Assembly: GCA_006218025.1 (NCBI GenBank) | Contig: VBWA01000001.1 | Coordinates: forward strand, 1 to 64,000 | Length of the DNA: 64,000 nucleotides | Direction: 5' to 3' | Origin: Rhodocyclaceae bacterium | GTDB taxonomy: Bacteria > Pseudomonadota > Gammaproteobacteria > Burkholderiales > Rhodocyclaceae | Shown: positions 2,075 to 64,000 of the stretch, piece by piece | Layout: each line of letters opens with the position of its first letter | How positions within the stretch are numbered: position 1 is the first letter of the stretch | Made by a program: the position numbers and the translations under genes | Notes under the pieces: model-generated | Told to the model about the DNA's origin: nothing | Databases searched by the model: none | Seen by the model: only the letters and a program-made list of their open reading frames with translations

Positions 2075-5000
2075 ATGAACGCGCCACTGCGCAACATCAC
2101 CCTCGAGGACAAATACGCCCTCAGCCAAGGCCGGGTGTTTCTTACCGGCACCCAAGCCCTCGTTCGTCTGCTGCTGCTGCAACGACAACGCGACGCCCTG
2201 GCCGGACTGAATACCGCCGGCTACGTGTCCGGCTACCGCGGCTCGCCTCTGGGTGGACTCGATCAGGCGCTGTGGAAAGCCAAACAGCATCTCGGCCAGA
2301 ACCAGATCGTGTTCCAGCCCGGCGTCAATGAGGACCTCGCCGCCACTGCGATTTGGGGCACGCAGCAAGTCAATCTGTCGCCCGGCGCCAAGCATGACGG
2401 CGTATTCGGCATGTGGTACGGCAAGGGGCCGGGGGTCGATCGCTGCGGCGACGTCTTCAAGCATGCCAATTCTGCCGGGACATGGAAACACGGCGGCGTA
2501 CTGGCCGTGGCCGGCGACGATCACGCCGCACGTTCATCCACCGTCGCCCACCAGTCGGAGCACGCCCTGAAAGCGGCGATGATGCCGGTGCTGGTGCCGG
2601 CGGGCGTGCAGGACTATCTCGACCTCGGCCTGCATGGCTGGGCCATGAGCCGCTACTCGGGTTGCTGGGTCGGCTTCAAGGCAGTGGCCGATACCGTCGA
2701 ATCGTCGGCCTCGGTGGATATTTCGCCGGACCGCGTGCGGATCGTGCTGCCCACCGACTATGCCCTGCCGACGAACGGCCTCAACATCCGCTGGCCGGAC
2801 GACCGCCTGCTGCAGGAAGCCCGACTGCTCGACCACAAGCTGTATGCCGCGTTGGCCTATTGCCGCGCCAACCGGCTGAACCAGGTCGTGATCGACGCCC
2901 CCAACCCAAGACTGGGCATCATCACCACCGGCAAGTCCTATCTCGACGTGCGCCAGGCCTTCGATGACCTCGGCATCGACGATGCGCTCGCCGCCGAAAT
3001 CGGCATCCGCCTCTACAAGGTCGGCATGGTCTGGCCGCTCGAGTCGGATGGCGTGCGCCGCTTCGCCGAAGGACTGGAAGAAATCCTGGTGGTCGAAGAA
3101 AAGCGCCAGCTGATCGAGTACCAGCTCAAGGAAGAACTCTACAACTGGCGCGAGGACGTGCGCCCGCGCGTGATCGGCAAGTTCGACGAAAAGGGCGAAT
3201 GGGCCCTGCCCAACGGACGCTGGCTGCTGCCCGCTTCCGGCGAGTTGTCGCCGGCACAAATCGCGCGCGTGATCGCCGACCGCATCAGCCGCCACTTCAC
3301 TTCGCCGCGCATCCGCGAACGTCTGGCGGTCATCGAAGCGAAGGAGCGCTCCGCCGCGCCGGTGATCCAGATCGCGCGCACGCCCTATTTCTGCCCGGGC
3401 TGTCCGCACAACACCTCGACCTGCGTACCGGAGGGTTCGCGCGCGCTGGCCGGCATCGGCTGTCATTTCATGGTGCTGTGGATGAACCGGGCCACGACCA
3501 CCTTTTCCCACATGGGCGGCGAAGGCGCGGCCTGGATGGGGCAGGCACCCTTCACCGAGCAGCGCCATGTCTTCGTCAATCTCGGCGATGGCACCTACTT
3601 TCATTCGGGCTCGCTGGCGATACGCGCCGCGGTGGCCTCGGGGGTCAACGCCACTTACAAGATTCTCTACAACGATGCCGTCGCCATGACTGGCGGCCAG
3701 CCGGTGGACGGCAACCTGACGGTGCCGCAGATCGCCCACCAGCTGCACGCGGAAGGCGTGCATCACGTCGTCGTCGTCACCGATGGCACGGCGCGCGCCT
3801 ATGGCCACCCCGATCTGCCGCACGGCGTGCCGATCCGCCATCGCGACGAGCTCGACACCATTCAGCGCGAGATGCGCGAATGCTCCGGCGTCTCAGCCAT
3901 CATCTACGACCAGACCTGCGCCGCCGAAAAGCGCCGCCGCCGCAAGCGCGGCAAGATGATCGATCCGCCGCGCCGGCTGTTCATCAACGAGGCCGTCTGC
4001 GAAGGCTGCGGCGACTGCGGCGTGCAATCCAACTGCCTCGCCGTGGTACCGGTGGAAACCGAATTCGGCCGCAAGCGCGCGATCGACCAGTCCGCATGCA
4101 ACAAGGACTACTCCTGCGAGAAGGGCTTCTGCCCGAGTTTCGTTTCGGTGCTCGGCGGCGGCGTCAAGAAGGGCCGCGGCCTCGCGGGTTCAGATACCGG
4201 CAGCGATTCATTCGGCGTGCCGCCAGCGCCGACTCCTGCGTCAACCACCAAGCCCTACGGCATCCTGATCACCGGCGTCGGCGGCACCGGCGTGGTCACC
4301 ATCGGCGCCTTGATCGGCATGGCGGCGCACATCGACGGCAAGGGTGTCACCGTGCTCGACATGACCGGGCTCGCGCAGAAAGGCGGCGCGGTGTTTTCCC
4401 ATGTGCGCATCTGCGACGATCCGGAAGCGATTCATGCCGTGCGAGTGGCGACCGGCGAAGCCGACGCCGTGATCGGCGGCGATGTCATCGTCACGGCGTC
4501 ACCCGACGCACTGACGCGGATGCAGACCGGCCGCACGCGCGTGGTGGTGAATTGCGCGGAGACGCCGACAGCAGATTTCACGCGCAATCCGGACTGGCAG
4601 TTTCCGCTGGCGCGCATGCAGGCCGTGGTCAGCGAAACCGTCGGCAGCGGCGCGGCGCATTTCGTCGATGCCTCGGACCTTGCGTTGCGTCTGCTGGGGG
4701 ATTCGATCGCCAGCAACCTGTTCCTGCTCGGCTACGCCTGGCAACAGGGCTCGGTGCCGGTCTCCGCGGAGGCCATCGATCGCGCCATCGAACTCAACGG
4801 CACCGCCGTCGCCATGAGTCGCGCTGCGTTTCTCTGGGGCCGCCGAGCGGCACACGATCCGGCGGCGGTTGCGGCCTATGCCCGGCCGACAATCGCCGTA
4901 CCGCCGGCGCCGACTCTCGACGAAGTGATCGCGAAGCGCGCGAACTTTCTCACCGACTATCAGGATGCCGCCTACGCAGAGCGCTATCGGACTCAAGTGG

Positions 5001-5542
5001 AAAAGATCCGCGCCGCGGAAGCTGCGATCAATTCATCGCAACTGACCGAAGCCGTGGCGCACAACCTGTTCAAGCTGATGGCGATCAAGGACGAATACGA
5101 GGTGGCGCGGCTTTACGCCGAAACCGACTTCCTGCAAAGGATCGGCGAGCGCTTCGAAGGCGATTACACGCTGCAGTTCCATCTGGCGCCGCCCTTGCTG
5201 GCCCGCCCCGATCCGACGACCGGCAAGGTGAAGAAAATGGCCTTCGGCCCGTGGATGCTCACGGCATTCAAGTGGCTGGCGAAGGCCCGCGGCTATCGGG
5301 GGTCGCGCTGGGATGTCTTTGGCCGCAGCGAAGAGCGGCGACTGGAGCGGGCTTTGCTGGCCGGCTATGAAGCCGACCTCGCCGCGCTGCCGGCGAAGCT
5401 GGAACGCACAAACCTGGGCGATGCCATTGCGCTGGCCAGTCTGCCGGAAATGATCCGCGGCTTCGGACACGTAAAGCGGCGCAGCATTGATGCCGCAGCG
5501 CCCGAACGCGAAGCCTTGCGCGGCAGGCTCGGCCTGATTTGA
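2075..5542 (+). CDS. Fused indolepyruvate ferredoxin oxidoreductase (IorA-IorB type)
   Basis: An 1155-residue fusion of the alpha and gamma parts of a 2-oxoacid:acceptor oxidoreductase that decarboxylates aryl pyruvates (indolepyruvate, phenylpyruvate) to aryl-acetyl-CoA using TPP and FeS clusters. The N-terminal pyrimidine-binding region starts YALSQGRVFLTGTQALVRL. The TPP domain contains CPGCPHNTSTC and NLGDGTYFHSG. A 4Fe-4S site follows near residue 641 (CEGCGDCGVQSNC), with more cysteines in CEKGFCPSF. The gamma domain begins ILITGVGGTGVVTIG. The start has AGGAG seven bases upstream. Two copies of the 24-bp dispersed repeat lie inside it, giving VPPAPTPAS near residue 715 in the inter-domain linker and VPPAPTLDE near 941. 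The fused form is typical of aerobic proteobacteria. Its product fits the aromatic-acid CoA ligase encoded further on. Confidence 0.92.
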   Translation: MNAPLRNITLEDKYALSQGRVFLTGTQALVRLLLLQRQRDALAGLNTAGYVSGYRGSPLGGLDQALWKAKQHLGQNQIVFQPGVNEDLAATAIWGTQQVNLSPGAKHDGVFGMWYGKGPGVDRCGDVFKHANSAGTWKHGGVLAVAGDDHAARSSTVAHQSEHALKAAMMPVLVPAGVQDYLDLGLHGWAMSRYSGCWVGFKAVADTVESSASVDISPDRVRIVLPTDYALPTNGLNIRWPDDRLLQEARLLDHKLYAALAYCRANRLNQVVIDAPNPRLGIITTGKSYLDVRQAFDDLGIDDALAAEIGIRLYKVGMVWPLESDGVRRFAEGLEEILVVEEKRQLIEYQLKEELYNWREDVRPRVIGKFDEKGEWALPNGRWLLPASGELSPAQIARVIADRISRHFTSPRIRERLAVIEAKERSAAPVIQIARTPYFCPGCPHNTSTCVPEGSRALAGIGCHFMVLWMNRATTTFSHMGGEGAAWMGQAPFTEQRHVFVNLGDGTYFHSGSLAIRAAVASGVNATYKILYNDAVAMTGGQPVDGNLTVPQIAHQLHAEGVHHVVVVTDGTARAYGHPDLPHGVPIRHRDELDTIQREMRECSGVSAIIYDQTCAAEKRRRRKRGKMIDPPRRLFINEAVCEGCGDCGVQSNCLAVVPVETEFGRKRAIDQSACNKDYSCEKGFCPSFVSVLGGGVKKGRGLAGSDTGSDSFGVPPAPTPASTTKPYGILITGVGGTGVVTIGALIGMAAHIDGKGVTVLDMTGLAQKGGAVFSHVRICDDPEAIHAVRVATGEADAVIGGDVIVTASPDALTRMQTGRTRVVVNCAETPTADFTRNPDWQFPLARMQAVVSETVGSGAAHFVDASDLALRLLGDSIASNLFLLGYAWQQGSVPVSAEAIDRAIELNGTAVAMSRAAFLWGRRAAHDPAAVAAYARPTIAVPPAPTLDEVIAKRANFLTDYQDAAYAERYRTQVEKIRAAEAAINSSQLTEAVAHNLFKLMAIKDEYEVARLYAETDFLQRIGERFEGDYTLQFHLAPPLLARPDPTTGKVKKMAFGPWMLTAFKWLAKARGYRGSRWDVFGRSEERRLERALLAGYEADLAALPAKLERTNLGDAIALASLPEMIRGFGHVKRRSIDAAAPEREALRGRLGLI
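4213..4236 (-). repeat. 24-bp dispersed repeat, copy 1
   Basis: Reverse-orientation copy inside the fused oxidoreductase gene. It encodes the linker peptide VPPAPTP and matches the family core GCCAGCGCCGACT exactly. Confidence 0.8.
4894..4917 (-). repeat. 24-bp dispersed repeat, copy 2
   Basis: Second copy in the same gene and orientation, 681 bases after copy 1 and in the same reading frame (VPPAPTL). It differs from the consensus at two bases. Confidence 0.8.
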
Positions 5543-8887: not shown

Positions 8888-10124
8888 ATTTTCGGGCGTC
8901 CTCGATGACCTTGCCGTCATTGGGCAGGCTGCCGGGGGCCACCAGCTTCACCTCGGCGCGCAGTTTGGTGACGTCGCGTACGGTCTCGGCAATGGCCTTC
9001 TCCAGGTCCCCGCCTGATGCGCCGGATGCGCCGGCTTCGCAACTCAGGGTCATGTGGTCGGTGCTGTCCGGATTGGTCACCACCAGTCGCGCCCGGGCAA
9101 TCTCCGGATGACGCTTGACCACCGCCGCCACCTGCTCGGGATGGACGAACATGCCCTTGATCTTGGTGGTCTGGTCGGCGCGCCCCATCCAGCCCTTGAT
9201 GCGCATGTTGGTGCGGCCGCAGGGGGAGTCACCAGGCAGGAAAGCCGACAGGTCGCCGGTGCCGAAACGGATCAGCGGGTAGTCGGTATTGAAGGTAGTC
9301 ACCACCACTTCGCCGACTTCGCCGACATTCACCGGATCGCCGGTACCCGGGCGCACGATCTCGACAATCACGCCTTCGTCGATCACCAGACCCTGGCGCG
9401 CCTCGGTTTCGTAGGCGATCACGCCGAGCTCGGCCGTGGCGTAGGCTTGGTAGCCGGCAATCCCGCGGGCCAACAGGGCCTCGCGCACCGGCGGCAGGAA
9501 AGCCTCGCCTGAAACCAGCGCCTTGGTGAGCGACGGGATCTTGACGCCGAGCTCGTCAGCCTTGTCGAGCAGGATGCGCAGAAAGGACGGGGTGCCGACA
9601 TAGCCGTTGGGCAGCAGGTCAGCCATCGCTGCCACCTGCTGCTCGGTCTGCCCGACACCCGCCGGGAACACGGTGCAACCGAGAGCCTGCGCGCCCGCCT
9701 CGAGAATCCATGCACCCGGCGTCATGTGATAGGAGAAACTGTTGTGCACCAGATCGCCGGAGCGAAAGCCTGCCGCATAGAGAGCGCGCGCCGTGCGCCA
9801 ATAATCTGCAACGCGTCCCTCCGGTTCGTAGATCGGGCCCGGCGACGAGAACACACGTCCCAGCCTGCCCCACTGCGATGCCGCCAGTCCCCCGAACGGC
9901 CGCTGCATTTTTTGCAGTTCGATCAGGTCGCTCTTGCGCACCACCGGCAGGCCTGCCAGCGCCGCAGCCGAAACAATCGCCGCGGCATCCACATGCTTCA
10001 GGGATTCGGCGAAGTACGCAGTGTTTGCCTTCGCGTGCGCGATCTGCTGCGGCAGCCGTGTCGCCAGCGCCGACTTTCGTTCGTCCGAGGAACGGGTTTC
10101 GAGCGCGTCGAAATATTTGGACAT
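8880..10124 (-). CDS. Phenylacetate-CoA ligase family AMP-forming enzyme (PaaK-like)
   Basis: A 414-residue adenylate-forming ligase of the PaaK family that would activate an aryl carboxylic acid with ATP and CoA. Recognisable parts are the N-terminal segment with LAGLPVVRKSDLIELQ, HNSFSYHMTPGAW, the adenine-binding YQAYATAELGVIAYE, and a C-terminal GWMGRADQTTKIKGMFVHPEQV that contains the hinge and the catalytic-lysine region. The ATG at 10124 has GGAG eight bases upstream. Longer upstream frame lacks homology. The 24-bp repeat at 10054 encodes RKSALATRLP near the N-terminus, in a different frame from most other copies. Position in the Liv operon supports aromatic-acid degradation. Phenylacetate itself is an inference from family. 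Confidence 0.87.
   Translation of the reverse strand: MSKYFDALETRSSDERKSALATRLPQQIAHAKANTAYFAESLKHVDAAAIVSAAALAGLPVVRKSDLIELQKMQRPFGGLAASQWGRLGRVFSSPGPIYEPEGRVADYWRTARALYAAGFRSGDLVHNSFSYHMTPGAWILEAGAQALGCTVFPAGVGQTEQQVAAMADLLPNGYVGTPSFLRILLDKADELGVKIPSLTKALVSGEAFLPPVREALLARGIAGYQAYATAELGVIAYETEARQGLVIDEGVIVEIVRPGTGDPVNVGEVGEVVVTTFNTDYPLIRFGTGDLSAFLPGDSPCGRTNMRIKGWMGRADQTTKIKGMFVHPEQVAAVVKRHPEIARARLVVTNPDSTDHMTLSCEAGASGASGGDLEKAIAETVRDVTKLRAEVKLVAPGSLPNDGKVIEDARKYD
10054..10077 (-). repeat. 24-bp dispersed repeat, copy 4
   Basis: Lies in the ligase gene at codons 16-24. The reading frame differs from copies 3, 6, 9, 10 and 11: here it is translated RKSALATR. Confidence 0.8.
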
Positions 10125-15642: not shown

Positions 15643-15690
15643 GCGGGCTTTGCCCGCGAACCTTGGTCACCCCCTTCCGTGGGAAGGGGG
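15643..15690. repeat. Palindromic repeats between acyl-CoA synthetase gene and livG
   Basis: Two perfect hairpins in the 121-base spacer: GCGGGC-TTT-GCCCGC (15643-15657) and CCCCCTTCC-GTG-GGAAGGGGG (15670-15690). The second has the same arms as the palindrome inside the RND gene at 39716. A third, weaker palindrome (CCCCTAGGGG) lies near 15612. Confidence 0.75.
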
Positions 15691-15714
15691 CCGGGGGGAA
15701 GGTCCTGTTCATGG

Positions 15715-17685: not shown

Positions 17686-17751
17686 GCGTTTTCTCTCCTC
17701 CAGCACTACCGATACAGACTCGCTTGTGTCGCGACTTGTCTGCCACAAAAA

Positions 17752-17781
17752 TTGAGTCTAAGGCATTCTCCTGCCTATAAT
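17752..17781 (+). promoter_or_regulatory. Sigma70 promoter of the Crp/Fnr-type gene
   Basis: A -35 TTGAGT (17752-17757), an 18-base spacer and a perfect -10 TATAAT (17776-17781). The expected start falls at about 17788, on the GTG start codon itself, so the transcript would be leaderless. Confidence 0.75.
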
Positions 17782-17800
17782 TGTCGCGTGCCTGACAATT
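17779..17800. promoter_or_regulatory. 22-bp palindrome, candidate Crp/Fnr-family operator
   Basis: Perfect inverted repeat AATTGTC-N8-GACAATT, the length of a classical CRP-family site. It overlaps the -10 element and start codon of the regulator gene. This placement suggests autorepression. Confidence 0.55.
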
Positions 17801-18495: not shown

Positions 18496-18518
18496 CGGGA
18501 CGGCATCGCCGTCCCGTC
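18496..18518. terminator. Bidirectional hairpin between convergent genes
   Basis: Perfect stem ACGGGACGGC-ATC-GCCGTCCCGT in the 48-base gap between the Crp-type gene and the convergent dehydrogenase gene. There is no T-run. The right arm is part of a 24-bp dispersed repeat copy. Confidence 0.65.
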
Positions 18519-18530
18519 AGCGCCGACTCT
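18507..18530 (-). repeat. 24-bp dispersed repeat, copy 5 (intergenic)
   Basis: Overlaps the right arm of the terminator hairpin, so the repeat supplies one strand of the stem. It differs from the consensus at two positions. Confidence 0.8.
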
Positions 18531-18534
18531 TGCA

Positions 18535-20769: not shown

Positions 20770-23700
20770 TTACATGCTGCGCCGGTACTGCCCGCCGACC
20801 AGATACAGGGCATTTGAAATCTGTCCCAGCGAGCAATGGCGCACGGCCTCCATCATCACCGCGAACACGTTCTTGTTGTCGATCACGGCCTGCTTCAGGC
20901 GGGCCAGGCAGGCCTCCGCCTCGCCGGCGTTGCGCGACTGGAAGTCCTTCAGGCGGTGGAGCTGCGACTGCTTCTCCTCCTCGGTTGAGCGCGCCAGTTC
21001 GATCTCGCTGGCGACGCCCGAGCCGTGCGGATTGAGGAAGGTATTGACGCCGATGATCGGGTAGGTGCCGTCGTGCTTCTTGTGCTCGTAGTGCATCGAC
21101 TCTTCCTGGATCTTGCCGCGCTGATAGCCGGTTTCCATGGCGCCGAGCACGCCGCCCCTTGAGGCGATGGCTTCGAATTCCTTGAGCACGGCTTCTTCGA
21201 CCAGGTCGGTCAGTTCCTCGATGATGAAGGCGCCCTGGTTCGGGTTCTCGTTCTTCGCCACGCCCCACTCGCGGTTGATGATGAGCTGGATGATGGCTTC
21301 GTCGTAGGCATTGGTGTGCAGGCTGTTGCAGTTGTCGTAGATCGCGATCAGCGCCTGCAGCGTGGTGCGGATGTCATTGAAGTCCATCTCCTGCGCGTGC
21401 AGCGAACGGCCCGAGGTCTGGATGTGATACTTGAGCTTCTGCGAACGCTCGTTGGCGCCGTAGCGGTTCTTCATCGCCACGGCCCAGATGCGGCGCGCGA
21501 CGCGGCCGATCACCGAGTATTCCGGGTCCATGCCGTTGCTGAAGAAGAAGGACAGATTGCCGGCGAAATCGTCGATGTGCATGCCGCGCGCCAGGTAGGT
21601 CTCGACATAGGTGAAGCCGTTGGCCAGGGTGAAGGCGAGCTGGCTGATCGGGTTGGCGCCGGCCTCGGCAATGTGGTAACCGGAGATCGAGACCGAGTAG
21701 AAATTGCGGATCTGGTTGTGCACGAAGAATTCGGCGATGTCGCCCATCATTTTCAGCGCGAACTCGGTCGAGAAAATGCAGGTGTTCTGGCCCTGGTCCT
21801 CCTTGAGGATGTCGGCCTGCACCGTGCCGCGCACGGATGACAGCGTCCATTCGCGGATCTTCTCGGCTTCTTCCTCGGTCGCATCGCGGCGGTTCTGCTC
21901 GCGGAATTTCTCGATCTGCTGATCGACGGCGGCGTTGAGGAACATGGCCAGGATCATCGGCGCCGGGCCGTTGATGGTCATCGACACCGAGGTCGCCGGG
22001 TCGCAGAGGTCGAAGCCGGAGTAGAGCACCTTGAGGTCGTCCAGCGTGGCGATCGAGACGCCCGAATTGCCGATCTTGCCGTAAATGTCCGGGCGCCGGT
22101 CGGGGTCGCAGCCGTAGAGCGTGACCGAATCGAAGGCCGTCGACAGGCGCTTCGCGGGCATGCCTTCGGACACCTTGAGGAAGCGCTTGTTGGTGCGGAA
22201 GGCGTCGCCCTCGCCGGCGAACATGCGCGTCGGGTCTTCGTTCTCGCTGAGGAACTTGAGCAGTTCGCCTTCGTCGTCGAAGCGCGGAAGCGCGACCTTG
22301 CGCACCTTGGTGCCGGACATGGTTTCAAAAATCAGACAGGTGCGGATTTCCTTGTCGCGGATTTTCACCACGTATTCGTCGCCGGCATAGGCCTTCTTCA
22401 TGTCCGGCCACATCGCCAGGAGCTTCCTGGCATGGGGCGTCAGCTGACCGTCCTTCCAGGCGATCAGCTCGTCGAAGTCGCCCGCGTTCTTGCCACAGCC
22501 CTCGAAGATGGTCTTGGCGGTTTTCAGCGATTGCCGCTCGCGCGCCAGCAGCGCCTGCTCGCCGATCTGGCGGTGATAACCGCGCAGGGCATCGGCAATG
22601 TCGGCCAGGTAGCGCACGCGGTCCGCCGGCACAATGGCGCGGCCGGCCGAGGAATGCTTGACGTTAACCGCCGGCAGCACGGCCTTGCCGAACTTGAGCC
22701 CGCGCTCGGCAAGGCGCGGCACCAGCGCCTGATACAGCGCGGTGACGCCATCGTCGTTGAAGCGTGCCGCCATGGTGCCGAACACCGGCATGTCCTCGGT
22801 CTTTTCCGAGAATCTTTCCCTGTTCCGCTGGTATTGCTTGCGCACGTCGCGCAGCGCATCCTCGGCGCCCTTGCGGTCGAACTTGTTGATCGCAACGAAG
22901 TCGGCGAAATCCAGCATGTCGATCTTTTCCAGTTGCGAGGCCGCGCCGAACTCGGGTGTCATCACGTAGAGCGAGACGTCGACCAGCGGCACTATCGCCG
23001 CGTCGCCCTGGCCGATACCGGAGGTTTCGACCACGATGAAGTCGAAGCCGGCCACCTTGCAGGCAGCGATGACGTCGGGCAGCGCCTTGGAGATTTCGCT
23101 GCCGGTGTCGCGCGTCGCCAAGGACCGCATGTAGATATTGGGGTGCTGAATCGCGTTCATGCGAATGCGGTCGCCGAGCAGCGCCCCCCCCGTGCGCTTG
23201 CGCGAGGGATCGATCGAGATCACCGCAATCTTCTGGCTGTCGTTCTGGTCGAGGCGGAAGCGGCGAATCAGTTCGTCGGTCAGCGAGGACTTGCCCGCGC
23301 CGCCGGTGCCGGTGATGCCCAGGGTGGGAACTGCGGTCGGCGCTGACTTATTACCAATATTCGCGGCGGCCTTTTCATGCAGTGCCTTCTTCGCCTTCTC
23401 CGGCCAGGCGCCATTCTCCAGCGCGGTGATGATCTGCGCCAGATTGCGCAGACGCTCGCTGCGATCTTCGACTTCCAGCGCCTTGAGGTCCTGCGGCGCG
23501 CGCTTGGTGATGTCGATGTCGCAACGCGCCACCATGTCGTTGATCATGCCCTGCAGGCCCATCGTCTGGCCGTCCTGCACCGAGTACAGGTGCGCCACGC
23601 CGTAGTCATGCAGCTCCTGCATCTCGGCCGGGACGATCACCCCGCCGCCGCCGCCGAAGACCTTGATGCTCTCGCCGCCTCTGGCTTTGAGCAGGTCGAT

Positions 23701-29477: not shown

Positions 29478-31052
29478 TCAGTGGCCCTTGTGCGGGTCGG
29501 CCGGCGCGCTCGACCCGGTCTGCGCTGCCGCATCCATCTTCGTGATTACCCACTCGCCCGGCTTGCGCTCGACGAACTCGATATTGACCGCGCTGCCGGG
29601 TTTGATCTTCTGCGTCAGCGAAGGATTCGCCAGCATGAAGTCCATGGTCATGCCCGGCCACTTGAGGCTTGGCACCGGACCGTGTGTCACGGTCACGCTG
29701 CCGGCCTTGGCATCGACGGCGTCCAGCGTGCCCGTCGCCTGGTGGCTGGCTGACTTGGGCGCCGCAGGCGCCGCAGCGGCAGTCAAGCCGCCGAGCGCCG
29801 CCTTGAGATTGCTTTCGGCATCGATCAGGAAATTGGCGGCGACCACCACCGGCTCGCCGTCCCTGACGCCCTCGATAACCTCCACGTAGCTGTCGCTGCG
29901 CGCGCCGAGCTTGACCTCGCGCGGCTCGAAACGCCCCGCGCCTTTTTCGATCAGCACGATCTGCCGCGTACCGCTGTCGATCACCGCCGAGACCGGCACC
30001 GTAACCACCTTGTCGCGCTCGCCCACCGCCAGCTCGACGCTGGCATACATGGCCGGCTTCAGCAGCCCGCCCGGATTGGCCAGCTCGATGCGCACCGGTA
30101 TCGTCCGCGTCTCGGCCTTCAAGGTCGGGTAGATGTAGGCGATGGTGCCGGTAAAGCTCTTCTCCGGGTAGGCGCTGATGCTGAGCCTGACCTTTTGCCC
30201 GGCCTTGACCTGCGCGATGTCGCGCTCGAAAACATCGGCCAGCACCCAGACCGAGGACAGGTCGGCGATCTGGTAGAGCATCTCGCCGGGCATGAAGCGC
30301 ATGCCGGCCACGGCCTTCTTCTCCAGCACCACGCCGCTCACCGGCGAGCGGAAGCTCAGCGTGCGCCTGGCCTCGCCGCCGGCCGCCAGCGCCTTGATCT
30401 GTTCCTCCGAAATGTCCCAGTTGCGCAGGCGGACCAGGCTGGCGTCGGCCAGCTGGCGCATGCCCGACTGCATTTCGCTGCTGGCGTCCTTGAGCGCCGC
30501 GACGCCCTTGGCGGCCACCACGTATTCGCGCTGCGCCGAGACCAGCTCCGGGCTATACACCTCGAACAGCGGCTGGCCCTTGGCCACCGGCTGGCCCGTA
30601 GCATTGACGTGCAGGTGCTCGACCCAGCCCTCGAATTTCGGTGCCACGTTGTGCAGGCGGCGCTCGTCGATTTCGACCCGACCGGAAGCCCGCACCTGGC
30701 GCGCCAGTTCGCGCAGCGCGGCGGGTTCTGTCCTGACGCCCAGCTTCTGAACTTTCTCGGTGCTGATCTTCACTTCGCCCGATGCGGCGCCGTCGTCCTC
30801 GCCGTCATAGACCGCGATGTAGTCCATGCCCATCGAGTCCTTCTTCGGCGTCGGCGAAGTGTCGGGCAGGCCCATTGGGTTGCGGTAGTAGAGCAGCTTG
30901 CGCTGCTTCGCCTCTACCGGCGCCGCCGCAACGCCCGGGGCAGCGGCAATCGCCGTGTCGCCAGCGCCGACTCTTGTCTTGCCGCCCAGCCAGTAGCCAC
31001 CGCCGACAGCCAGCAGCAGGGCCGCCAGCACGGCCGGTATTTGGTATTTCAT
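29478..31052 (-). CDS. cusB: RND efflux adaptor CusB-type with C-terminal CusF-like domain
   Basis: A 524-residue membrane-fusion protein linking pump and outer-membrane channel in the periplasm. The N-terminal anchor is IPAVLAALLLAVGGGYWLGG. A heavy-metal-binding domain follows (YYRNPMGLPDTSPTPKKDSMGMDYI, here noted by its PMG/PDTSPxPK/DSMGM pattern). Then come the barrel-sandwich and alpha-hairpin domains (WVEHLHVNATGQPVAKGQPLFEVYSPEL). Residues ~445-520 form a CusF-like metallochaperone domain with THGPVPSLKWPGMTM, which keeps the His, Trp and two Met ligands of CusF. A 24-bp repeat copy gives TRVGAGDTAIAA just after the anchor. Its ATG overlaps the cusC stop (ATGA). Confidence 0.93.
   Translation of the reverse strand: MKYQIPAVLAALLLAVGGGYWLGGKTRVGAGDTAIAAAPGVAAAPVEAKQRKLLYYRNPMGLPDTSPTPKKDSMGMDYIAVYDGEDDGAASGEVKISTEKVQKLGVRTEPAALRELARQVRASGRVEIDERRLHNVAPKFEGWVEHLHVNATGQPVAKGQPLFEVYSPELVSAQREYVVAAKGVAALKDASSEMQSGMRQLADASLVRLRNWDISEEQIKALAAGGEARRTLSFRSPVSGVVLEKKAVAGMRFMPGEMLYQIADLSSVWVLADVFERDIAQVKAGQKVRLSISAYPEKSFTGTIAYIYPTLKAETRTIPVRIELANPGGLLKPAMYASVELAVGERDKVVTVPVSAVIDSGTRQIVLIEKGAGRFEPREVKLGARSDSYVEVIEGVRDGEPVVVAANFLIDAESNLKAALGGLTAAAAPAAPKSASHQATGTLDAVDAKAGSVTVTHGPVPSLKWPGMTMDFMLANPSLTQKIKPGSAVNIEFVERKPGEWVITKMDAAAQTGSSAPADPHKGH
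30951..30974 (-). repeat. 24-bp dispersed repeat, copy 6
   Basis: In cusB, just after the membrane anchor; translated RVGAGDTA, the same frame as copies 3, 9, 10 and 11. Confidence 0.8.
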
Positions 31053-34865: not shown

Positions 34866-34932
34866 GGCGTGTCAGCTTCCGGTGAGGATGCCGTTTGGCA
34901 TCGGTGCCAGGAAGGATTCAGGGCGCGCCGCG

Positions 34933-34956
34933 AAAGTCGGCGCCGGCGGGACGGCG
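34933..34956 (+). repeat. 24-bp dispersed repeat, copy 7 (intergenic)
   Basis: Forward orientation, one base from the consensus. Together with copy 8 (reverse orientation at 36157) it brackets the brnTA module. Confidence 0.8.
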
Positions 34957-35120
34957 AGGGAGCAGTCGCGAAGCGCTGCTTCGCGCCCTCGCCGGTCGGT
35001 GGGCCATGCAGGGCCACCGAGGGCTCCGATCAGGGGCCGAAGCGGGATTCAAAATGGTGCGCCTTTTCGGCCAGAGCGGACGATCGTTAATTTCAAGTCG
35101 ATATCCGCTTCGTGCCCTTT

Positions 35121-35905: not shown

Positions 35906-36220
35906 ACGCTTTTTGTTTCAGGCGTTTTCTTGAGCGGGATTATCTGCACTCCGTGGCTGCTACCCAAAAAGGACGAGCAGCGTTGGTCCGGATAGTGAAT
36001 GGCTGTTTTCGTTAGCGCCGACAGGCAGCTCGGGGCGCAGAGGGGAAGTAGCGATTTCCGATAAGCCGCCGCCGCTCGGATTTGTGGCTCCCGTTTTCCA
36101 CTGCAGGGCTTCGAACGGCAGCAATGCGAACGGCAGCTGCCGGTCAACCAGCTCGCCGCCGTGCCATCGGCGCCGACTTTCAGGCCGCCGCTTCGCCCTT
36201 GCACCTTTCCCGCCCGCCTT
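35906..36220. other. 315-base spacer upstream of the second efflux operon
   Basis: No convincing gene. A minus-strand open frame (about 35902-36204) is Cys/Ser/Arg-rich with no recognisable motif and no start signal. The region ends with a 24-bp dispersed repeat and leads into metal-operator box 2. Confidence 0.6.
36157..36180 (-). repeat. 24-bp dispersed repeat, copy 8 (intergenic)
   Basis: Reverse orientation, four bases from the consensus. It lies 41 bases before metal-operator box 2. Confidence 0.75.
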
Positions 36221-38093: not shown

Positions 38094-39248
38094 ATGACGA
38101 AAATGAATTTGCGCGTTCTGTTCGCCGCGACAACGCTGACACTGGCGGCGAACGGCGCGCTGGCCCACGGCGACGAGGATCACAGCCAGGACGCCAAGAA
38201 GGCCTCGTCCACGACGCCGGCCAGTGGTGCGCCGGGCGCGGCCGATGCGCCGGCCGCGCTGCAGCGCCTGGCCGATGGCAGCCTGTTCGTGCCCAAGCCG
38301 GTGCAGCGCCAGCTCGGTATTCGTACCCAGCAGGCACGCATTGGCGATCTCGCGGCAACGGTCGAACTCAATGGCAAGGTGATTGCCGACCCGAACACCG
38401 GCGGCCGCGTCCAGGCTCCGGTTGCCGGCAGCGTGATGCCCGGCCCCAAAGGCATGCCGACGCCGGGTCGCAAGGTCGTCAAGGGCGAGCTGCTGGCCTG
38501 GCTGCGCCCGGTGGCGAGCGCCATCGAACGCGGCAACCAGAAAGCGCTTTTGTCCGAACTGGAGGCCCAGCTGGCGATTGCCGATGGACGGGTGAAGCGT
38601 TTCGAACAGCTCGAGGGCGCCGTGCCGCAAAAGGAAATCGACGCGGCACGGATCGAGCACGGGGCGCTGCAAAAGCGCCGCAGCTTCGTCGCCGCCAGCA
38701 TCGATAGCGCCGAGCCGCTGCTGGCACCGGGGGCGGGCGTGATCAGCGCCTCGCACCATCTGGTGGCCGGCCAGATCGTCGATGCCAGGGAGGTTCTGTT
38801 CGAGATCGTCGATCCCGACCACCTTGCGGTCGAGGCCCTGTCCTACGATCCCGGGATCGGCGCGAGCCTGATCTCCGCCAGTGCGCTGGCGGAACAAACC
38901 GCGCTGGAACTGAAATACGTCGGCGGCGGCCGCCAGTTGCGCGAACAGGCGCTGCCGCTGCTGTTCCGCATCGTTTCCGCCAACTCGATGGTGGCCGTCG
39001 GCCAGCCGGTCAAGGTGATGGTGCGCACCGCGCACGAGGTCAAGGGCGCGGCGGTGCCGCGCTCGGCGCTGACCAAAGTCGGCGCTGGCGAGACGGCGGT
39101 GTGGGTGCATACGGAAGCCGAGCGCTTCGTCGTGCGCCGCGTGCGCCATCAGGCGCTGGATGCCGCCAATGTCGCGATTGTCGACGGCCTGCACGAGGGC
39201 GACCGAGTGGTCGTCGAAGGTGCCGGCCTGCTATCGCAAGTCCGCTAA
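38094..39248 (+). CDS. RND efflux adaptor (CusB/CzcB type), second system
   Basis: A 384-residue periplasmic adaptor with signal peptide RVLFAATTLTLAANGALA and a mature His-rich start (HGDEDHSQD). The barrel-sandwich hybrid motif is GRVQAPVAGSVMPGPKGMPTPGRKVVKGELLAWLRP, here noted as G.V.AP..G.V. A helical hairpin (LSELEAQLAIADGRVKRFEQLEGAVPQKEIDAA) follows, then the beta-barrel and membrane-proximal domain. The sequence AGGGGA lies 13 bases before the ATG. A 24-bp dispersed repeat gives TKVGAGETAVW near residue 330. It lacks the N- and C-terminal metal domains of the first CusB, so it may serve another metal. Confidence 0.9.
   Translation: MTKMNLRVLFAATTLTLAANGALAHGDEDHSQDAKKASSTTPASGAPGAADAPAALQRLADGSLFVPKPVQRQLGIRTQQARIGDLAATVELNGKVIADPNTGGRVQAPVAGSVMPGPKGMPTPGRKVVKGELLAWLRPVASAIERGNQKALLSELEAQLAIADGRVKRFEQLEGAVPQKEIDAARIEHGALQKRRSFVAASIDSAEPLLAPGAGVISASHHLVAGQIVDAREVLFEIVDPDHLAVEALSYDPGIGASLISASALAEQTALELKYVGGGRQLREQALPLLFRIVSANSMVAVGQPVKVMVRTAHEVKGAAVPRSALTKVGAGETAVWVHTEAERFVVRRVRHQALDAANVAIVDGLHEGDRVVVEGAGLLSQVR
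39075..39098 (+). repeat. 24-bp dispersed repeat, copy 9
   Basis: Forward copy in the adaptor gene, one base from the consensus; translated KVGAGETA. Confidence 0.85.
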
Positions 39249-42492: not shown

Positions 42493-42972
42493 ATGAAAAC
42501 CCTGAACGTTCTGATCTTCACCGCCGCCATGCTGACCGGCGCCTTTGCCACCCCAACAGCGCTGGCGCATAGCGACGACGTGCTCGATACCCAGAAAGCG
42601 CCCAACGGCGGCCAGTTGCGCATGGCCGGCGTCTATCACTTCGAACTGGTCGTCGCCAGGGACAGCAAGGAGGCCAGGGACAATCCGGTCGTCGTCTTTG
42701 TCACCGACCATGCCGGTGCGAAGATTCCAACAGTCGGCGCTGGCGGCACGGCGACCATCCTCGCCGGCAAGCAAAAAGCCAGCGTCAAGCTGGTCCCGGA
42801 TGGCGACAATCGCCTCAAGGGCGTCGGCAAGTACGCCTCGACGCCGGACATGAAGGCTGTGGTCTCGGTCACCATGGCCGGCAAGCCCGCCGAACAGGCG
42901 CGGTTTACTCCGCTGGCACCCATGACACCCGCTGCTGCCGCCAAGGACGGGCATACGGATCACAAGCACTGA
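42493..42972 (+). CDS. Secreted conserved hypothetical protein of metal efflux operon
   Basis: A 159-residue periplasmic protein with signal peptide LIFTAAMLTGAFATPTALA. The mature part begins HSDDVLDTQKAPNGGQLRMAGVYHFELVV, a pattern I associate with small proteins encoded beside Czc/Cus pumps, and ends in a His-rich tail DGHTDHKH that could bind metal. A 24-bp repeat copy encodes TVGAGGTATI in the middle. It follows the RND pump by 28 bases and closes the operon. A periplasmic metal buffer is a reasonable inference; no enzyme motif is visible. Confidence 0.75.
   Translation: MKTLNVLIFTAAMLTGAFATPTALAHSDDVLDTQKAPNGGQLRMAGVYHFELVVARDSKEARDNPVVVFVTDHAGAKIPTVGAGGTATILAGKQKASVKLVPDGDNRLKGVGKYASTPDMKAVVSVTMAGKPAEQARFTPLAPMTPAAAAKDGHTDHKH
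42730..42753 (+). repeat. 24-bp dispersed repeat, copy 10
   Basis: Forward copy, two bases from the consensus; translated TVGAGGTA. Confidence 0.8.
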
Positions 42973-52348: not shown

Positions 52349-54178
52349 TCACTCTACCGTAACGCTCTTCGCAAGGTTGCGCGGTTTGTCCACATCCGTG
52401 CCTTTCACCAGCGCGGCGTGATAGGACAGCAATTGTAGTGGAATGACATGCAGTACCGGTGACAGCAGGCCGTAGTGTTCCGGCAGACGCAGCACGTGCA
52501 CGCCCTCCTCCTGATCCACGGCCGAATCGGCATCGGCGAAGACGTAGAGTTCGCCGCCGCGCGCGGCCACTTCCTTGAGGTTGGACTTGAGCTTTTCCAG
52601 CAGGGCATCGTTGGGCGCAATGCTGATGACCGGCATGTCCTTGTCGACCAGCGCCAGGGGGCCGTGCTTGAGTTCGCCGGCGGGATAGCCCTCGGCGTGG
52701 ATGTAGGAGATTTCCTTGAGCTTCAGCGCGCCTTCCAGCGCGATCGGATAGTGATGGCCGCGGCCGAGGAACAGCGCGTGCTGCTTGTCGGCGAAGCGCG
52801 TTGCCCAGACCTTGATTTCGGGTTCGAGAGCCAGGACTTTCTGCACCGCCACCGGCAGGTGGCGCAGGGCCTTCAGGTGTGCGCCCTCCTGCTCGGGCGT
52901 CAGGCGCCCGGTCTGCTTGGCCAGCGTTACGGCGAGCAGGAACAGCGCGGCCAGCTGGGTGGTGAAGGCCTTGGTCGACGCAACGCCGATCTCGGGTCCG
53001 GCGCGGGTCAGGAAGCGCAGGGCGCATTCACGCACGATGGCCGATTCGGGGACGTTGCACAATGCCAGCGTCTTGCTCATGCCGAGCGCCTTGGCGTGCT
53101 TGACCGAGGCCAGAGTATCGGCGGTTTCGCCCGATTGGGAGATGGCGACCACGAGCTGCTCGGGGTTCGGCACCGAGACGCGGTAGCGGTACTCGCTGGC
53201 GATCTCGACGCTGCAGGCGATTCCCGCCAGCTGCTCGATCCAGTAGCGGGCGACGAGGCCGGCGTGATAGCTGGTGCCGCAGGCGAGGATCAGCACCGAG
53301 CCCACGCCCTTCAGCATTTCCGGCGCGGCGACGCCGAACAGGTTGGGGCTCAGGGTCTGCGCACCGCCGATCATTTCCAGCGTCGCCGCCAGTGCCTGCG
53401 GCTGCTCGAAGATTTCCTTCTGCATGTAGTGCCGGTAGTCGCCCAGCTCGACATCGTTCGCCGAGAGCGTACTTTCATGTACCGGGCGGTCAGCCGGCAC
53501 ATTCAGCGCCGTGCCGTCAGCGCCGACTATTCGAATCGTCTCGCGCGTCAGTTCGGCGACGTCGCCGTCTTCGAGATAGATCATGCGTCGCGTGACCTGC
53601 AGCAGGGCCGATGCGTCGGACGCGGCGTAGTTGCCGTCTTCACCCAGCCCCAACAAGAGGGGTGCGCCGTGACGGGCGACGACGATGGCGTCGTTCCCTT
53701 CCTGCACCACGGCAATCGCATAGGCGCCGATCAGCCGCGCCTTCGCCAGGCGCACGGCATCGAACAGGTCAGGCGCCGTTTTCAGCATGTGCTGGACCAG
53801 ATGGGCGATGACCTCGGTGTCGGTGTCCGAGGTAAACACGTAGCCTTCCGCGACGAGCTCCTGCTTGAGTTCGGAATAGTTTTCGATGATGCCGTTATGC
53901 ACCACCGCCAGGCCGCCGGAAACGTGCGGATGCGCATTGCGCTCGGAGGGCACGCCATGGGTTGCCCAGCGCGTATGGGCGATGCCGTGATGGGCCACCT
54001 GGCCCGCCGCCTGTGTCGCCAGTTCGGCGACGCGGCCGACGCTGCGCAGGCGCGTCAGGGTCGGATTGAGCAGCGCGAGGCCGGCGGAGTCATAGCCGCG
54101 GTATTCCAGGCGTTGCAAACCGGCGATCAGGACCGGAACGATGTTGCGCGCGGCAACGGCTGCGACGATGCCGCACAT
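52349..54178 (-). CDS. glmS: Glutamine-fructose-6-phosphate aminotransferase
   Basis: A 609-residue enzyme making glucosamine-6-phosphate from fructose-6-phosphate and glutamine, the first step of amino-sugar synthesis. Cys2 (MCGIVAAV) is the glutaminase nucleophile; [17 protein letters not shown] and later GNGIIENY-like [11 protein letters not shown] complete the domain. Two SIS isomerase repeats follow ([43 protein letters not shown]), ending KSVTVE. A 24-bp repeat copy inserts [12 protein letters not shown] between the domains. It follows glmU by three bases, so both steps to UDP-GlcNAc are co-expressed. Confidence 0.96.
53507..53530 (-). repeat. 24-bp dispersed repeat, copy 11
   Basis: In glmS; translated VGADGTAL on the gene strand. 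Three bases from the consensus. Confidence 0.8.
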
Positions 54179-54181
54179 AAG

Positions 54182-55624
54182 TCAGCCCTTCTTCTTTTTT
54201 ACCGGCCGCTTCCAGCCGGGAATCGACACCTGTTTCGCGCGCGAAACGGTCAGCTGGTCGGGCGGCGCGTCGCGGCTCAGCGTGGTGCCCGCGCCCAGCG
54301 TGGCACCGCGGCCGACCGTCACGGGCGCCACCAGCTGGGTGTCGGAGCCGATGAAGGCATCGTCCTCGATCACGGTACGGAACTTGTTGGCGCCGTCATA
54401 GTTGCAGGTAATGGTGCCGGCGCCGATGTTCACGCGGCTGCCGATCGTGGCATCGCCGAGGTAGGCGAGGTGATTGGCCTTGGAGTGATCGGCGATGGAC
54501 GAATTCTTCACTTCGACGAAATTTCCGACATGCACGTCGCGGCCGAGTTCGGTGCCGGGTCGCAGCCGCGCGTAGGGACCGATGATGCCGTCCGCTCCGA
54601 TCACGGCGTCTTCGATGTGGCAGAAAGGAGCGATCCGCGTTCCGCTGCCGATGCGGCAATTCTTCAGCACGCAGTTGGCGCCGATGACAACCCTGTCGGC
54701 CAGTTCGACGCGGCCCTCGAAGACGCAATTGACGTCGATCGTGACGTCGCGCCCACAGACAAGTTCGCCGCGCACATCGATTCGCGCCGGATCGCTCAGC
54801 GTCACGCCGGCTTCCATCAGCTGCCCGGCGATAGTGCGCTGATGCACGCGCTCCAGCGTGGCGAGTTGCGCCTTGCTGTTGATGCCCTCGGTTTCCCAGG
54901 GCTCGTCGGGATGTGCCGTCACCACCGGCATGCCTTCGGCCACCGCCAGGGCGACGATGTCGGTCAGGTAGTACTCGCCCTGCGCATTGCGCTTGCCCAA
55001 GTTGGGCAGCCAGCGCGCCAGCGCCGCCGTAGGTGCCACCAGAATGCCCGTGTTGATTTCGTGAATCGCGCGCTCGGCATCGTCGGCATCCTTCTCCTCG
55101 ACGATGCGCTTCACCGCTCCGTCGACGCGGACGATGCGCCCGTAGCCCTGCGGATTGTCCAGATGCGCAGTGAGCAGCGCCAGCGAGCCGGTACCTGCCG
55201 CCTCGATCAGGCGCTGCAGGGTCGAGGCGCGAATCAGGGGGACATCGCCGTACAGCACAAGGGTGGAAGAGGCGGTCGGCGCTGACGCGCTCTGCGTGCC
55301 CGGGATGCCGCTCGCCCGCCGCGAAGCGGAATCCCGGGTGTGTTGAGACCGCGGGCAGGCAACGGCGGGCATCGCCTGCAGCACGGCATGGCCGGTGCCG
55401 AGCTGCGGTTCCTGCAGGGCCCACGCGATGTCGGGTGCGTCGAGCGCGCTGCGAACCTGCTCTCCGCCGTGGCCATATACCACGCAGATTTTCTCTGCGC
55501 CAATCTCGCGCGCCGCATCGAGCACGTGCCCGAGCAACGCCTTTCCCGCCAGCGGATGCAGCACCTTGGGCAGGTCGGAGCGCATGCGCTTGCCCTGCCC
55601 GGCGGCGAGAATGACGACGTTCAA
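54182..55624 (-). CDS. glmU: Bifunctional UDP-N-acetylglucosamine pyrophosphorylase/acetyltransferase
   Basis: A 480-residue bifunctional enzyme making UDP-GlcNAc. The uridyltransferase domain starts [26 protein letters not shown], with [10 protein letters not shown] and a EINTGILV motif. The C-terminal left-handed beta helix (hexapeptide repeats, e.g. [30 protein letters not shown]) carries the acetyltransferase site. Typical GlmU is ~450-460 residues; here ~30 extra residues ([31 protein letters not shown]) split the uridyltransferase domain between AMPAVA and TLVLYGD, at residues ~88-120. The insert overlaps a degenerate 24-bp repeat. It is transcribed before glmS. Confidence 0.94.
55265..55363 (-). 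repeat. Composite repeat inserted in frame in glmU
   Basis: In-frame segment of about 99 bases with a degenerate dispersed-repeat core (GTCGGCGCTGAC at 55275-55286), a GGGATTCC-type hairpin with loop near 55316-55345, and a GCGGTC/GACCGC pair. The peptide part GIPGTQSA matches GIPGVQSA at the start of the YbaN-like gene. Confidence 0.75.
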
Positions 55625-61723: not shown

Positions 61724-61746
61724 CTTGTCATTCCTCGGAAATACGA

Positions 61747-61802: not shown

Positions 61803-61839
61803 CTTGGATGGCCCGCCGAACGTGGCGGACGAACGTGTA

Positions 61840-61868
61840 AATATACCGCCAAAAGCCGCCGAATTCAA
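61840..61868 (-). promoter_or_regulatory. gltB promoter
   Basis: -35 TTGAAT (61868-61863), exact 17-base spacer, -10 TATATT (61845-61840). Predicted start near 61833 and a leader of about 110 bases. Confidence 0.7.
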
Positions 61869-61893
61869 TACGTTGCAACGCAACATACGGACT

Positions 61894-63018: not shown

Positions 63019-64000
63019 GACAGCAGGACTCGATGGCCGCGACAATCTCCTCGCGCGGCGCATCGGCATAAGTCACCGCATCGCCCAGCGCCTTGAGCAG
63101 CACGAGACGCAAGCTGCCGGCGATGACCTTCTTGTCGTGGGACATCAGTTCGAGATAGCGCGCCGCGCCGAGATCGGCGCCTTTGACGGGCAAGTTGGCG
63201 CGCTGCAGCACGGCGCGGACACGGTCGACATCGGCGACGGACAGCCAGCCCAGACGGCGCGAGAGTTCGACCGCCATCATCATGCCGGCAGCCACCGCCT
63301 CGCCATGCAACCATTCGCCATAGCCCATGCCGGTTTCGATGGCGTGGCCGAAGGTGTGGCCGAGATTGAGCAGCGCCCGACCGCCGACCGCAGCAGTCTC
63401 GTATTCGTCCGCCGCGACCACCTCTGCCTTGTTGGCGCAGGAACGCTCGATGGCATGCGCGAGCAATTCACCGTCGCGCGCGAGCAGCCCTTTCATGTTG
63501 GCTTCCAGCCAGCCGAGAAAAGGCAGGTCGCGAATCAGCCCGTACTTGATGACCTCCGCCATGCCGGCTGACAGCTCCCGGTCCGGCAACGTCTTTAATG
63601 TGTCGGTATCCGCCAGCACCAGCTTCGGCTGCCAGAAGGCGCCGACCATGTTCTTGCCGCGCGGATGATTGATGCCCGTCTTGCCGCCCACCGAGGAATC
63701 CACTTGCGAGAGCAGGGTGGTCGGAATCTGGACAAAGGGCACTCCGCGCTGATATGTGGCGGCGGCAAACCCCGCCAGATCGCCGATGACTCCGCCACCC
63801 AAAGCAACGATCGTGGTCCCGCGGTCGCAGCGATTTGCCAGCAGGGCGTCATAAATCAGGTTGAGCGACTCCCAGTTCTTGTGCGCTTCGCCATCGGGAA
63901 GGATGATCGGCGTAACGCCAACGCCGACTTTCTCCAGAGCCTTGACGACAATGTCCAGATACAGCGGCGCAACGTTGGTGTTGCTGACCAGTGCGACGCG
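63011..64000 (-). CDS. aroB: 3-dehydroquinate synthase, partial
   Basis: Partial gene, 5' end lost at the right edge; about 329 residues are present. It cyclises DAHP to 3-dehydroquinate in the shikimate pathway. NAD+-binding [20 protein letters not shown], the metal-binding set (Glu in [13 protein letters not shown], His in [12 protein letters not shown] and [13 protein letters not shown]) and [20 protein letters not shown] are all intact. The 24-bp repeat copy 12 encodes KVGVGVTP near the visible N-terminus. Shares transcription with dgt. Confidence 0.96.
63908..63931 (-). repeat. 24-bp dispersed repeat, copy 12 (diverged)
   Basis: In aroB; translated EKVGVGVT. Four bases from the consensus. 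Confidence 0.65.

What the first reader, a model, noticed from the sequence alone, without database searches (positions are those of the whole stretch)
4213..63931. Dispersed 24-bp repeat family shared by unrelated genes and spacers
A 24-bp sequence (forward: AAAGTCGGCGCTGGC followed by GGGACGGCG) occurs 12 times with 0-4 mismatches: 4213, 4894, 7003, 10054, 18507, 30951, 34933, 36157, 39075, 42730, 53507 and 63908. Two more degenerate copies carry GTCGGCGCTGAC (near 23337 and 55275). Nine good copies lie inside unrelated genes (oxidoreductase twice, AEC permease, PaaK-like ligase, CusB, second adaptor, secreted protein, GlmS, AroB) and three in spacers, one forming a terminator arm. They are read as KVGAGGTA in most genes, but as RKSALATR or PPAPT in others, so conservation is at DNA level, not protein level. 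Density (about one per 5 kb), coding tolerance, both orientations and a terminator location recall DNA-uptake sequences of Neisseria and Pasteurellaceae. A nucleoid or replication protein site, or a tiny mobile element, are alternatives. I know of no described role for this sequence.
Basis: partly seen in the sequence, partly recalled or inferred. Interest (0 to 1): 0.85.

Follow-up and report, generated by a model that had tools for sequence, protein, structure and literature searches.

The report
Genome-wide 26-bp repeated DNA motif
The window carries 13 copies of a 26-base DNA word that occurs hundreds of times in this genome and its relatives and appears to arise by small changes in place inside ordinary genes, as do the tags that some bacteria use to recognise their own DNA during uptake; its function here is untested.

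Summary
The 21-base core occurs 664 times (up to 3 mismatches; backwards-pattern control 3) in the window's genome. All 31 same-genus genomes searched, the own included, carry 45-664 copies. Eleven of 146 other family genomes sampled, in five other genera, carry 191-715; one more genus has its own dialect. Copies lie on both strands, use all six frame relations to genes and are about threefold enriched between genes. They are mostly not insertions: of 60 sites with an orthologue lacking the short motif, 45 have one of equal length and one shows a 24-32 bp difference. At the GlmS site a rare Ile codon is kept in 25 of 26 genus sequences. Best reading: a DNA-uptake-type self-recognition signal working like DUS/USS, confidence 0.55. 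Uptake and a receptor are not shown, and overall motif identity between species does not exceed that of flanks. Some copies carry hairpin inserts at two fixed positions, unexplained.

The parts
4212..4237 (-). motif copy, 35.4 bits, inside a gene with POR, TPP-enzyme and DUF6537 domains (2006-5542 +)
4893..4918 (-). motif copy, 39.3 bits, same gene
10053..10078 (-). motif copy, 35.2 bits, in an AMP-binding ligase gene
18506..18531 (-). intergenic motif copy, 39.5 bits; its 3' half is one arm of an inverted repeat followed by TTTT
   Evidence: terminator scan negative
30950..30975 (-). motif copy, 43.4 bits, best in the window, in a cusB-type gene (HlyD_D23 + CusF domains)
34932..34957 (+). motif copy, 36.3 bits, called intergenic by my simple gene caller
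36156..36181 (-). motif copy, 30.7 bits, called intergenic, upstream of an outer-membrane efflux protein gene
39074..39099 (+). motif copy, 39.3 bits, in a HlyD_3 gene; short form in G002, G010 and G017, long form in G007 at the same place
42729..42754 (+). motif copy, 38.0 bits, in a small gene without a Pfam match; an equal-length motif-less orthologue exists in G007
53506..53531 (-). motif copy, 33.4 bits, in glmS (52349-54178 -); the best-studied site
63907..63932 (-). motif copy, 30.2 bits, in aroB (gene runs past the window end)
55264..55366 (+). approximate extent of an interrupted copy: GTCGGCGCTGAC at 55275, then a hairpin-type insert with further nested sequence, ending GGCAGGCAACGGCG; several other species have a short copy at this place
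23336..23347 (+). degenerate copy; G002 and G010 have a scoring copy at this place

Best explanation
The motif is most likely a DNA-uptake-type self-recognition signal. A surface DNA receptor of the natural-transformation machinery would bind the 26-bp word (blocks AAAGT, CGGCGCTGGCG and ACGGCGA), so that fragments carrying good copies are taken up and recombined more often. Every mutation towards the consensus is then favoured in the DNA pool, and copies build up in place wherever coding or spacer sequence tolerates them. Shown here: number, sequence, distribution, in-place origin at about ten loci, DNA-level maintenance (clearest in GlmS), dialects and apparent losses. Inferred: that the recogniser is an uptake receptor, that uptake bias is the driving force, and that these bacteria are competent.
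For: Hundreds of copies on both strands (338 forward, 326 reverse; 124 and 137 exact copies in the one-contig genome G002). 31 of 31 same-genus genomes and 11 of 146 other family genomes sampled, in five other genera. Of 95 sites in 464 kb, 52 lie in gene models and 43 outside, where about 15% of the sequence lies; all six frame relations are used (binomial p about 2e-12; simple gene caller). In-place origin: of 60 sites with an orthologue lacking the short motif, 45 have one of equal length and 1 shows a 24-32 bp difference; by eye these are about ten independent loci. GlmS: ATA in 25 of 26 genus sequences although ATA is 5.6% of Ile codons, CGA in 18 of 26 although 5.2% of Arg codons, and the least conserved third position is the motif's own free position. 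Third-position identity 167 of 211 (79%) in the motif against 691 of 1077 (64%) in flanks, over ten coding sites (p 1.5e-5; pairs not independent). Dialect: AAAGTCGACGCTGG 139 times in G122 and 0-8 times in each of 24 other genomes. The low-copy genomes G016, G021 and G025 lie inside the genus on a GlmS tree and have degraded GlmS sites. About 34 bits of conservation, while finding 100 sites in 464 kb needs about 13 bits (my arithmetic). ComEC match in 28 of 28 genus genomes tested, partial at a contig edge in G021.
Against: No uptake data. ComEC and DprA are also present in the low-copy genomes and in most outgroups tested, so competence genes do not track the motif. The window's own genome shows no DprA above cut-off, although it has the most copies (possibly an assembly gap). 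The GspH-family pilin survey gave no candidate receptor. Over all 220 ungapped orthologue pairs the motif is not more identical than its flanks (77% vs 81%; higher in 102 of 220), and at the one intergenic site it is less (32 of 42 vs 194 of 228). At intergenic site 18506 the G016 sequence is 39 bp shorter, and one site has a 29-bp difference, so single insertions or deletions are possible. The motif is longer than DUS. Half-motifs are rare (5 hits in 464 kb, no control made) and intermediate scores are few, whereas simple gradual accumulation might predict more. Hairpin forms and tandem arrays look element-like. GlmS sites also carry changes in G001, G010, G015 and G027, which are not low-copy, and a 12-bp length difference lies directly behind the motif in G018 and two outgroups. 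IMG/VR contigs carry the motif.
Confidence: 0.55

Rival explanations
1. The motif is a binding site for a chromosome-organising, repair or regulatory protein, and each site is kept by direct selection rather than by uptake bias.
For: GlmS codons and third positions at ten coding sites show DNA-level constraint. Low-copy lineages could have lost the binding protein. Copies are spread over the chromosome.
Against: About 34 bits of conservation against about 13 needed to find the sites (my arithmetic). No strand polarity seen: the 100 of 124 forward copies listed run from 14 kb to 2.85 Mb in G002 (reverse positions not listed), and contig C7 of the own genome has mixed strands. The sequence is not a palindrome. 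No promoter preference is evident: of 23 copies between co-directional genes, 11 lie within 25 bp of the upstream stop codon, though some also lie close before start codons.
Confidence: 0.2
2. The motif is a tiny mobile or structured repeat (REP-like) that copies itself into genes and spacers; the hairpin-bearing long forms are the complete element and the 26-bp form is a reduced version.
For: Form B occurs 1-35 times in each of 31 genus genomes. Different hairpins use the same two slots. G076, outside the motif-rich clade, has forms B, E and F in an 80-kb sample. Tandem 28/49-bp arrays in G003. Form-B copies look homogenised within species (by eye). One 29-bp and one 39-bp difference at sites.
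Against: 1 of 60 sites with an orthologue lacking the short motif shows a 24-32 bp difference; control positions give similarly rare differences (28-36 bp in 5 of 1587 pairs; sites 29 or 39 bp in 2 of 971). The GlmS motif columns are ungapped against outgroups. The short form outnumbers form B by about 25 to 1 in G000 (664 vs 26).
Confidence: 0.15
3. The matches are protein-driven coincidence (a KVGAGGTA-like peptide motif).
For: 24 of 52 coding copies are read in the KVGAG frame.
Against: 43 of 95 copies are outside gene models and 28 of 52 coding copies use the other five frame relations; rare codons are kept at the GlmS site.
Confidence: 0.01

Closest known systems
DNA uptake sequences (DUS) of Neisseriaceae, bound by minor pilin ComP
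   Same: Hundreds of copies, coding and intergenic, permissive regions, clade-specific dialects (PMC3630211, passages seen; PMC12616744, introduction read).
   Different: About 26 bp and 34 bits instead of up to about 13 nt; unrelated sequence; no receptor identified; uptake bias not tested; two slots that accept hairpin inserts.
Uptake signal sequences (USS) of Pasteurellaceae
   Same: Discontinuous motif of comparable reach (9-nt core plus AT-rich regions, up to 32 nt; PMC12616744, introduction); one orientation preferred in reading frames (abstract of PMC2346458); gradual evolution by point mutation proposed (PMC1939737, passages).
   Different: Here the further blocks are GC-rich rather than AT tracts; different taxon.
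HIP1 of cyanobacteria (recalled, not tested)
   Same: Highly iterated word tolerated in genes.
   Different: HIP1 is an 8-bp palindrome; this motif is long and asymmetric.
REP and small palindromic mobile repeats (recalled)
   Same: Some long forms carry hairpins; dispersed; tandem arrays in one species.
   Different: The common form is not palindromic and rarely looks like an insertion.

Membership tests
DNA uptake sequences (DUS/USS) | Biased uptake of DNA that carries the motif | not testable with these tools
   Needs competent cells.
DNA uptake sequences (DUS/USS) | Hundreds to thousands of copies, both orientations, over the whole genome | tested here: met
   664 copies (338/326) against 3 control; 261 exact copies in G002.
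DNA uptake sequences (DUS/USS) | Copies arise by substitution in place, not by insertion | tested here: met
   45 of 60 sites have an equal-length orthologue lacking the short motif, 1 of 60 a 24-32 bp difference (sites not all independent); GlmS.
DNA uptake sequences (DUS/USS) | Dialects that follow clades | tested here: met
   AAAGTCGACGCTGG 139 copies in G122, 0-8 in each of 24 others; consensus shifts in G003 and G014.
DNA uptake sequences (DUS/USS) | Compact core of about 9-12 nt | tested here: not met
   Conservation spreads over about 26 bp, about 34 bits. For this reason, and because uptake is untested, it is described as working like DUS/USS, not filed as a member.
DNA uptake sequences (DUS/USS) | Frequent inverted pairs acting as terminators | tested here: inconclusive
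   Few close inverted pairs in 464 kb: one at 33 bp in L026 and a cluster at 65 and 112 bp in L012; the inverted repeat at 18506 was not called by the scan.
DNA uptake sequences (DUS/USS) | Transformation machinery present | tested here: inconclusive
   ComEC match in 28 of 28 genus genomes; DprA above cut-off in 17 of 18 genomes tested, the miss being the window's own genome. Pilus genes other than GspH-type pilins were not searched.
DNA uptake sequences (DUS/USS) | Cognate surface receptor (ComP-like minor pilin) | tested here: inconclusive
   GspH-family matches in 18 of 18 genomes tested; none tracks the motif.
REP-type or small mobile repeats | Empty orthologous sites without the element | tested here: not met
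   1 of 60 sites, plus one 39-bp case at an intergenic site; applies to the short form only.
Replication-oriented motifs (KOPS/Chi-like, recalled) | Strand polarity along the chromosome | tested here: not met
   100 of 124 forward copies listed in G002 spread over 14 kb to 2.85 Mb; totals 124 vs 137; reverse positions were not listed.

The most novel reading that the evidence does not exclude
A third, independently evolved self-DNA recognition system exists in Sulfuritalea-like bacteria and neighbours. Its receptor reads three short blocks whose spacing can be bridged by hairpins, so that recognition may act on single-stranded or hairpin-extruded DNA, unlike any described uptake signal known to me.
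Probability: 0.15. Interest if true: 0.95.

Novelty: new variant of a known kind. Interest (0 to 1): 0.8.

Why it matters
[quoted passage not shown] If confirmed, this is a third case, in environmental bacteria, with a far longer motif. It would give an independent test of how uptake signals originate, spread, change dialect and decay, with an experiment that can be tried in a cultured strain.

Tried and rejected
Genus-limited distribution: suggested, overturned, which found high counts in five more genera. Strand segregation in G002: suggested by the truncated list; one search shows forward copies spread along the chromosome and similar totals on both strands. Insertion origin: tested and rejected for most of the short form. 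Loss of competence genes in low-copy genomes: ComEC and DprA are present there, so rejected as a simple explanation. A minor pilin that tracks the motif: none found. Known RNA family: at gathering thresholds Rfam gave only three tRNAs in the window and nothing on the seven long-form loci given. Replacement motif in G016 or in five outgroups: no k-mer of comparable strength in samples of 20-142 kb. Half-motifs on their own: 4 and 1 hits in 464 kb (no control). Higher overall identity of the motif than of flanks between species: not found over 220 ungapped pairs. Independence of the Sulfurisoma copies: of 11 sites in Sulfurisoma loci, two could be anchored in main-clade loci; one clearly sits where G000 has form B, the other in a poorly aligning stretch next to form B, so independent accumulation is not shown; 12 of 183 main-clade sites could be anchored there (nine of them GlmS) and all 12 are absent.
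Full report
WHAT IS THERE. Ten copies with up to 3 mismatches lie in the window against none in 100 shuffles. In the whole genome (G000, 4.44 Mb, 141 contigs; the window is contig C7:1-64000) the 21-base core GTCGGCGCTGGCGGGACGGCG occurs 664 times with up to 3 mismatches, 338 forward and 326 reverse; the same pattern read backwards occurs 3 times. From 464 kb of this genome (the window plus 20 stretches of 20 kb) I built a weight matrix. The conserved part runs from four bases before the core to one or two after it: R-A-R-A-GTCGGCGCTGGCG-R-N-ACGGCG-A, in total about 34 bits; flanks beyond are near random. One hundred sites score 14 bits or more and none in a fourth-order Markov simulation; 14 of the 100 lie between 16 and 28 bits. 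The copies at 23336 and 55275 are degenerate or interrupted copies at places where relatives have a scoring one.

WHO CARRIES IT. All 31 same-genus genomes searched, the own included, have 45-664 copies, with controls of 6 or fewer; the 30 outside genomes of that call have 0-9, the highest of them with a control of 6. A wider search of 150 family genomes drawn evenly from a larger group (up to 2 mismatches on a 22-mer; controls of 2 or fewer) overturned my first view that it is limited to one genus. Beside four genomes of the own genus, eleven genomes in five other genera have 191-715 copies (G061; G091; G072, G156, G201; G123, G177, G213; G141, G189, G223). Three more have 37, 27 and 18, and the other 132 have 0-10. 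On a GlmS tree the motif-rich genera fall in one clade with the own genus, which also holds G122 and the copy-poor G067, except g94 (Sulfurisoma by a contig length), which stands apart (one gene, support not examined). G122 has its own dialect: AAAGTCGACGCTGG occurs 139 times there and 0-8 times in each of 24 other genomes. G003 and G014 show milder consensus shifts.

WHERE THE COPIES SIT. With a simple gene caller of my own (346 genes, 85% coding), 52 of 95 sites are inside gene models and 43 outside (p about 2e-12); genes missed by the caller would lower this enrichment. Inside genes the copies use all six frame relations: 24 in the KVGAG frame, 7 and 1 in the other forward frames, and 11, 6 and 3 in the reverse ones. 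Of 23 copies between co-directional genes, 11 lie within 25 bp of the upstream stop codon. In the one-contig genome G002, 261 exact copies (124 forward, 137 reverse) occur; the 100 forward positions listed run from 14 kb to 2.85 Mb (reverse positions not listed). One 20-kb stretch of lower GC content with sugar-modifying genes has no copy, a single example.

HOW COPIES ARISE AND ARE KEPT. I anchored both flanks of 358 sites in the loci held. Ninety-two sites had anchored orthologues, and 60 of these had at least one orthologue without the short motif (long forms count as lacking it). In 45 of the 60 such an orthologue has exactly the same length, and in one there is a difference of 24-32 bp as an insertion would give. 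In the pair counts, differences of 29 or 39 bp occur in 2 of 971 pairs at sites (the 39-bp one at the intergenic site 18506 against G016), and differences of 28-36 bp in 5 of 1587 control pairs. Many of the 45 are GlmS orthologues; by eye about ten loci are independent. GlmS (window 53506) is the clearest case. Of 27 genus relatives searched, 25 gave a usable GlmS (G003 and G008 did not). The motif columns are ungapped in the 26 genus sequences and 3 outgroups; the outgroup G035 reads RIMRPDGAS where the genus mostly reads RIVGAGGTA or RIVGADGTA; a 12-bp length difference lies directly behind the motif in G018, G032 and G035. In 25 of 26 genus sequences the Ile codon is ATA (5.6% of Ile codons in my gene models), in 18 of 26 the Arg codon is CGA (5.2% of Arg codons), and the least conserved third position is the motif's own free position. 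As a whole the site is less exceptional: 7% of eight-codon windows of the gene are as conserved at third positions. Over ten coding sites with ungapped orthologues, third-position identity is 79% in the motif (167 of 211) and 64% in flanks (691 of 1077), while first and second positions are alike; 16 gapped pairs were set aside, and the one intergenic site goes the other way (32 of 42 vs 194 of 228) (p 1.5e-5; pairs not independent). Against this, over all 220 ungapped pairs the motif is on average not more identical than flanks (77% vs 81%; higher in 102 of 220); my reading is that sites lie in weakly conserved stretches and some orthologues lack them. The three genomes with few copies (G016 45, G021 123, G025 194) lie inside the genus on the GlmS tree and have degraded GlmS sites, which reads as loss and decay. 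G001, G010, G015 and G027 also have changes there without being low-copy.

HAIRPIN VARIANTS. A minority of copies carry extra bases at two fixed positions. Slot 1, between AAAGT and the CGCTGGCG block, takes form B (TCCCNNAGGGACGCANNGCGCTGG, usually +21 bp) or form E (TATGCGNAGCGGTATCCCCTTGNGGGA). Slot 2, between CTGGC and ACGGCGA, takes form D (TGCGTACCTGGGATTCCGCTTCGCGGGCAGGTA, which also occurs without the motif's other blocks) or form F (with CCCCTTGGGGGA). Form B occurs 26 times in G000, 1-35 times in each of 31 genus genomes and once in each of 2 of 90 others. Its short stem shows paired changes (TTCC/GGAA, GCCC/GGGC, TCTC/GAGA variants in the list; read by eye, not counted with a tool). 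At one place G007 has form B where G000, G002, G010 and G017 have the short form. G076, outside the motif-rich clade, has forms B, E and F in an 80-kb sample. In G003 short and long units form tandem arrays of 28- and 49-bp period. I cannot explain these forms; they are the main unexplained point and the main support for a mobile-repeat component.

WHAT IT MOST LIKELY IS. In-place origin, spread on both strands, intergenic enrichment, tolerance in permissive gene regions, clade dialects and decay in some lineages resemble the pattern described for DUS and USS (PMC3630211, passages; PMC1939737, passages; PMC2346458, abstract; PMC12616744, abstract and introduction). A ComEC match is present in 28 of 28 genus genomes. 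DprA is above cut-off in 17 of 18 genomes tested, the exception being the window's own genome. Both are present in low-copy and most outgroup genomes tested, so they do not discriminate. No receptor candidate tracks the motif. I put the uptake-type reading at 0.55, a chromosomal binding site at 0.2 and a mobile repeat at 0.15.

NOVELTY. Searches of the held library found no paper with 'DNA uptake sequence' and Rhodocyclales, 'natural transformation' and Sulfuritalea, 'uptake sequence' and Rhodocyclaceae, or the string GTCGGCGCTGGCG. The library lacks most subscription papers. PMC12616744 names only Neisseriaceae and Pasteurellaceae as families with such discrimination. I therefore rate it a new variant of a known kind, with function unproven.

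Noticed in passing
L011, L013, L018, L027, L069, L148, L155, L164, L168-L184, L422 and others: Long motif forms with hairpin inserts at two fixed slots (B, D, E, F); form-B copies look homogenised within species (by eye).
   Followed up: partly
L165 and L166 (G003): Tandem arrays of the motif with 28-bp (short) and 49-bp (long) periods.
   Followed up: partly
L228 and L229 (GlmS of G007 and G005): About 120 bp in-frame insert near residue 39 of GlmS, different from the motif.
   Followed up: no
genome G000: No DprA match over the cut-off, whereas 17 of 17 other genomes tested have one; possibly an assembly gap.
   Followed up: no
   Followed up: no
L020 (G000:C28:20001-40000): Lower-GC region with sugar epimerase, aminotransferase and methyltransferase genes and no motif copy.
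   Followed up: partly
window 29478-31052: CusB-type adaptor with a fused CusF copper-binding domain.
   Followed up: no
window 15679-18486: 935-residue open frame whose only Pfam matches are a cNMP-binding plus Crp-type HTH end; the true start may be further downstream.
   Followed up: no
window 91-388: Three tRNA genes in a row on the minus strand.
   Followed up: no
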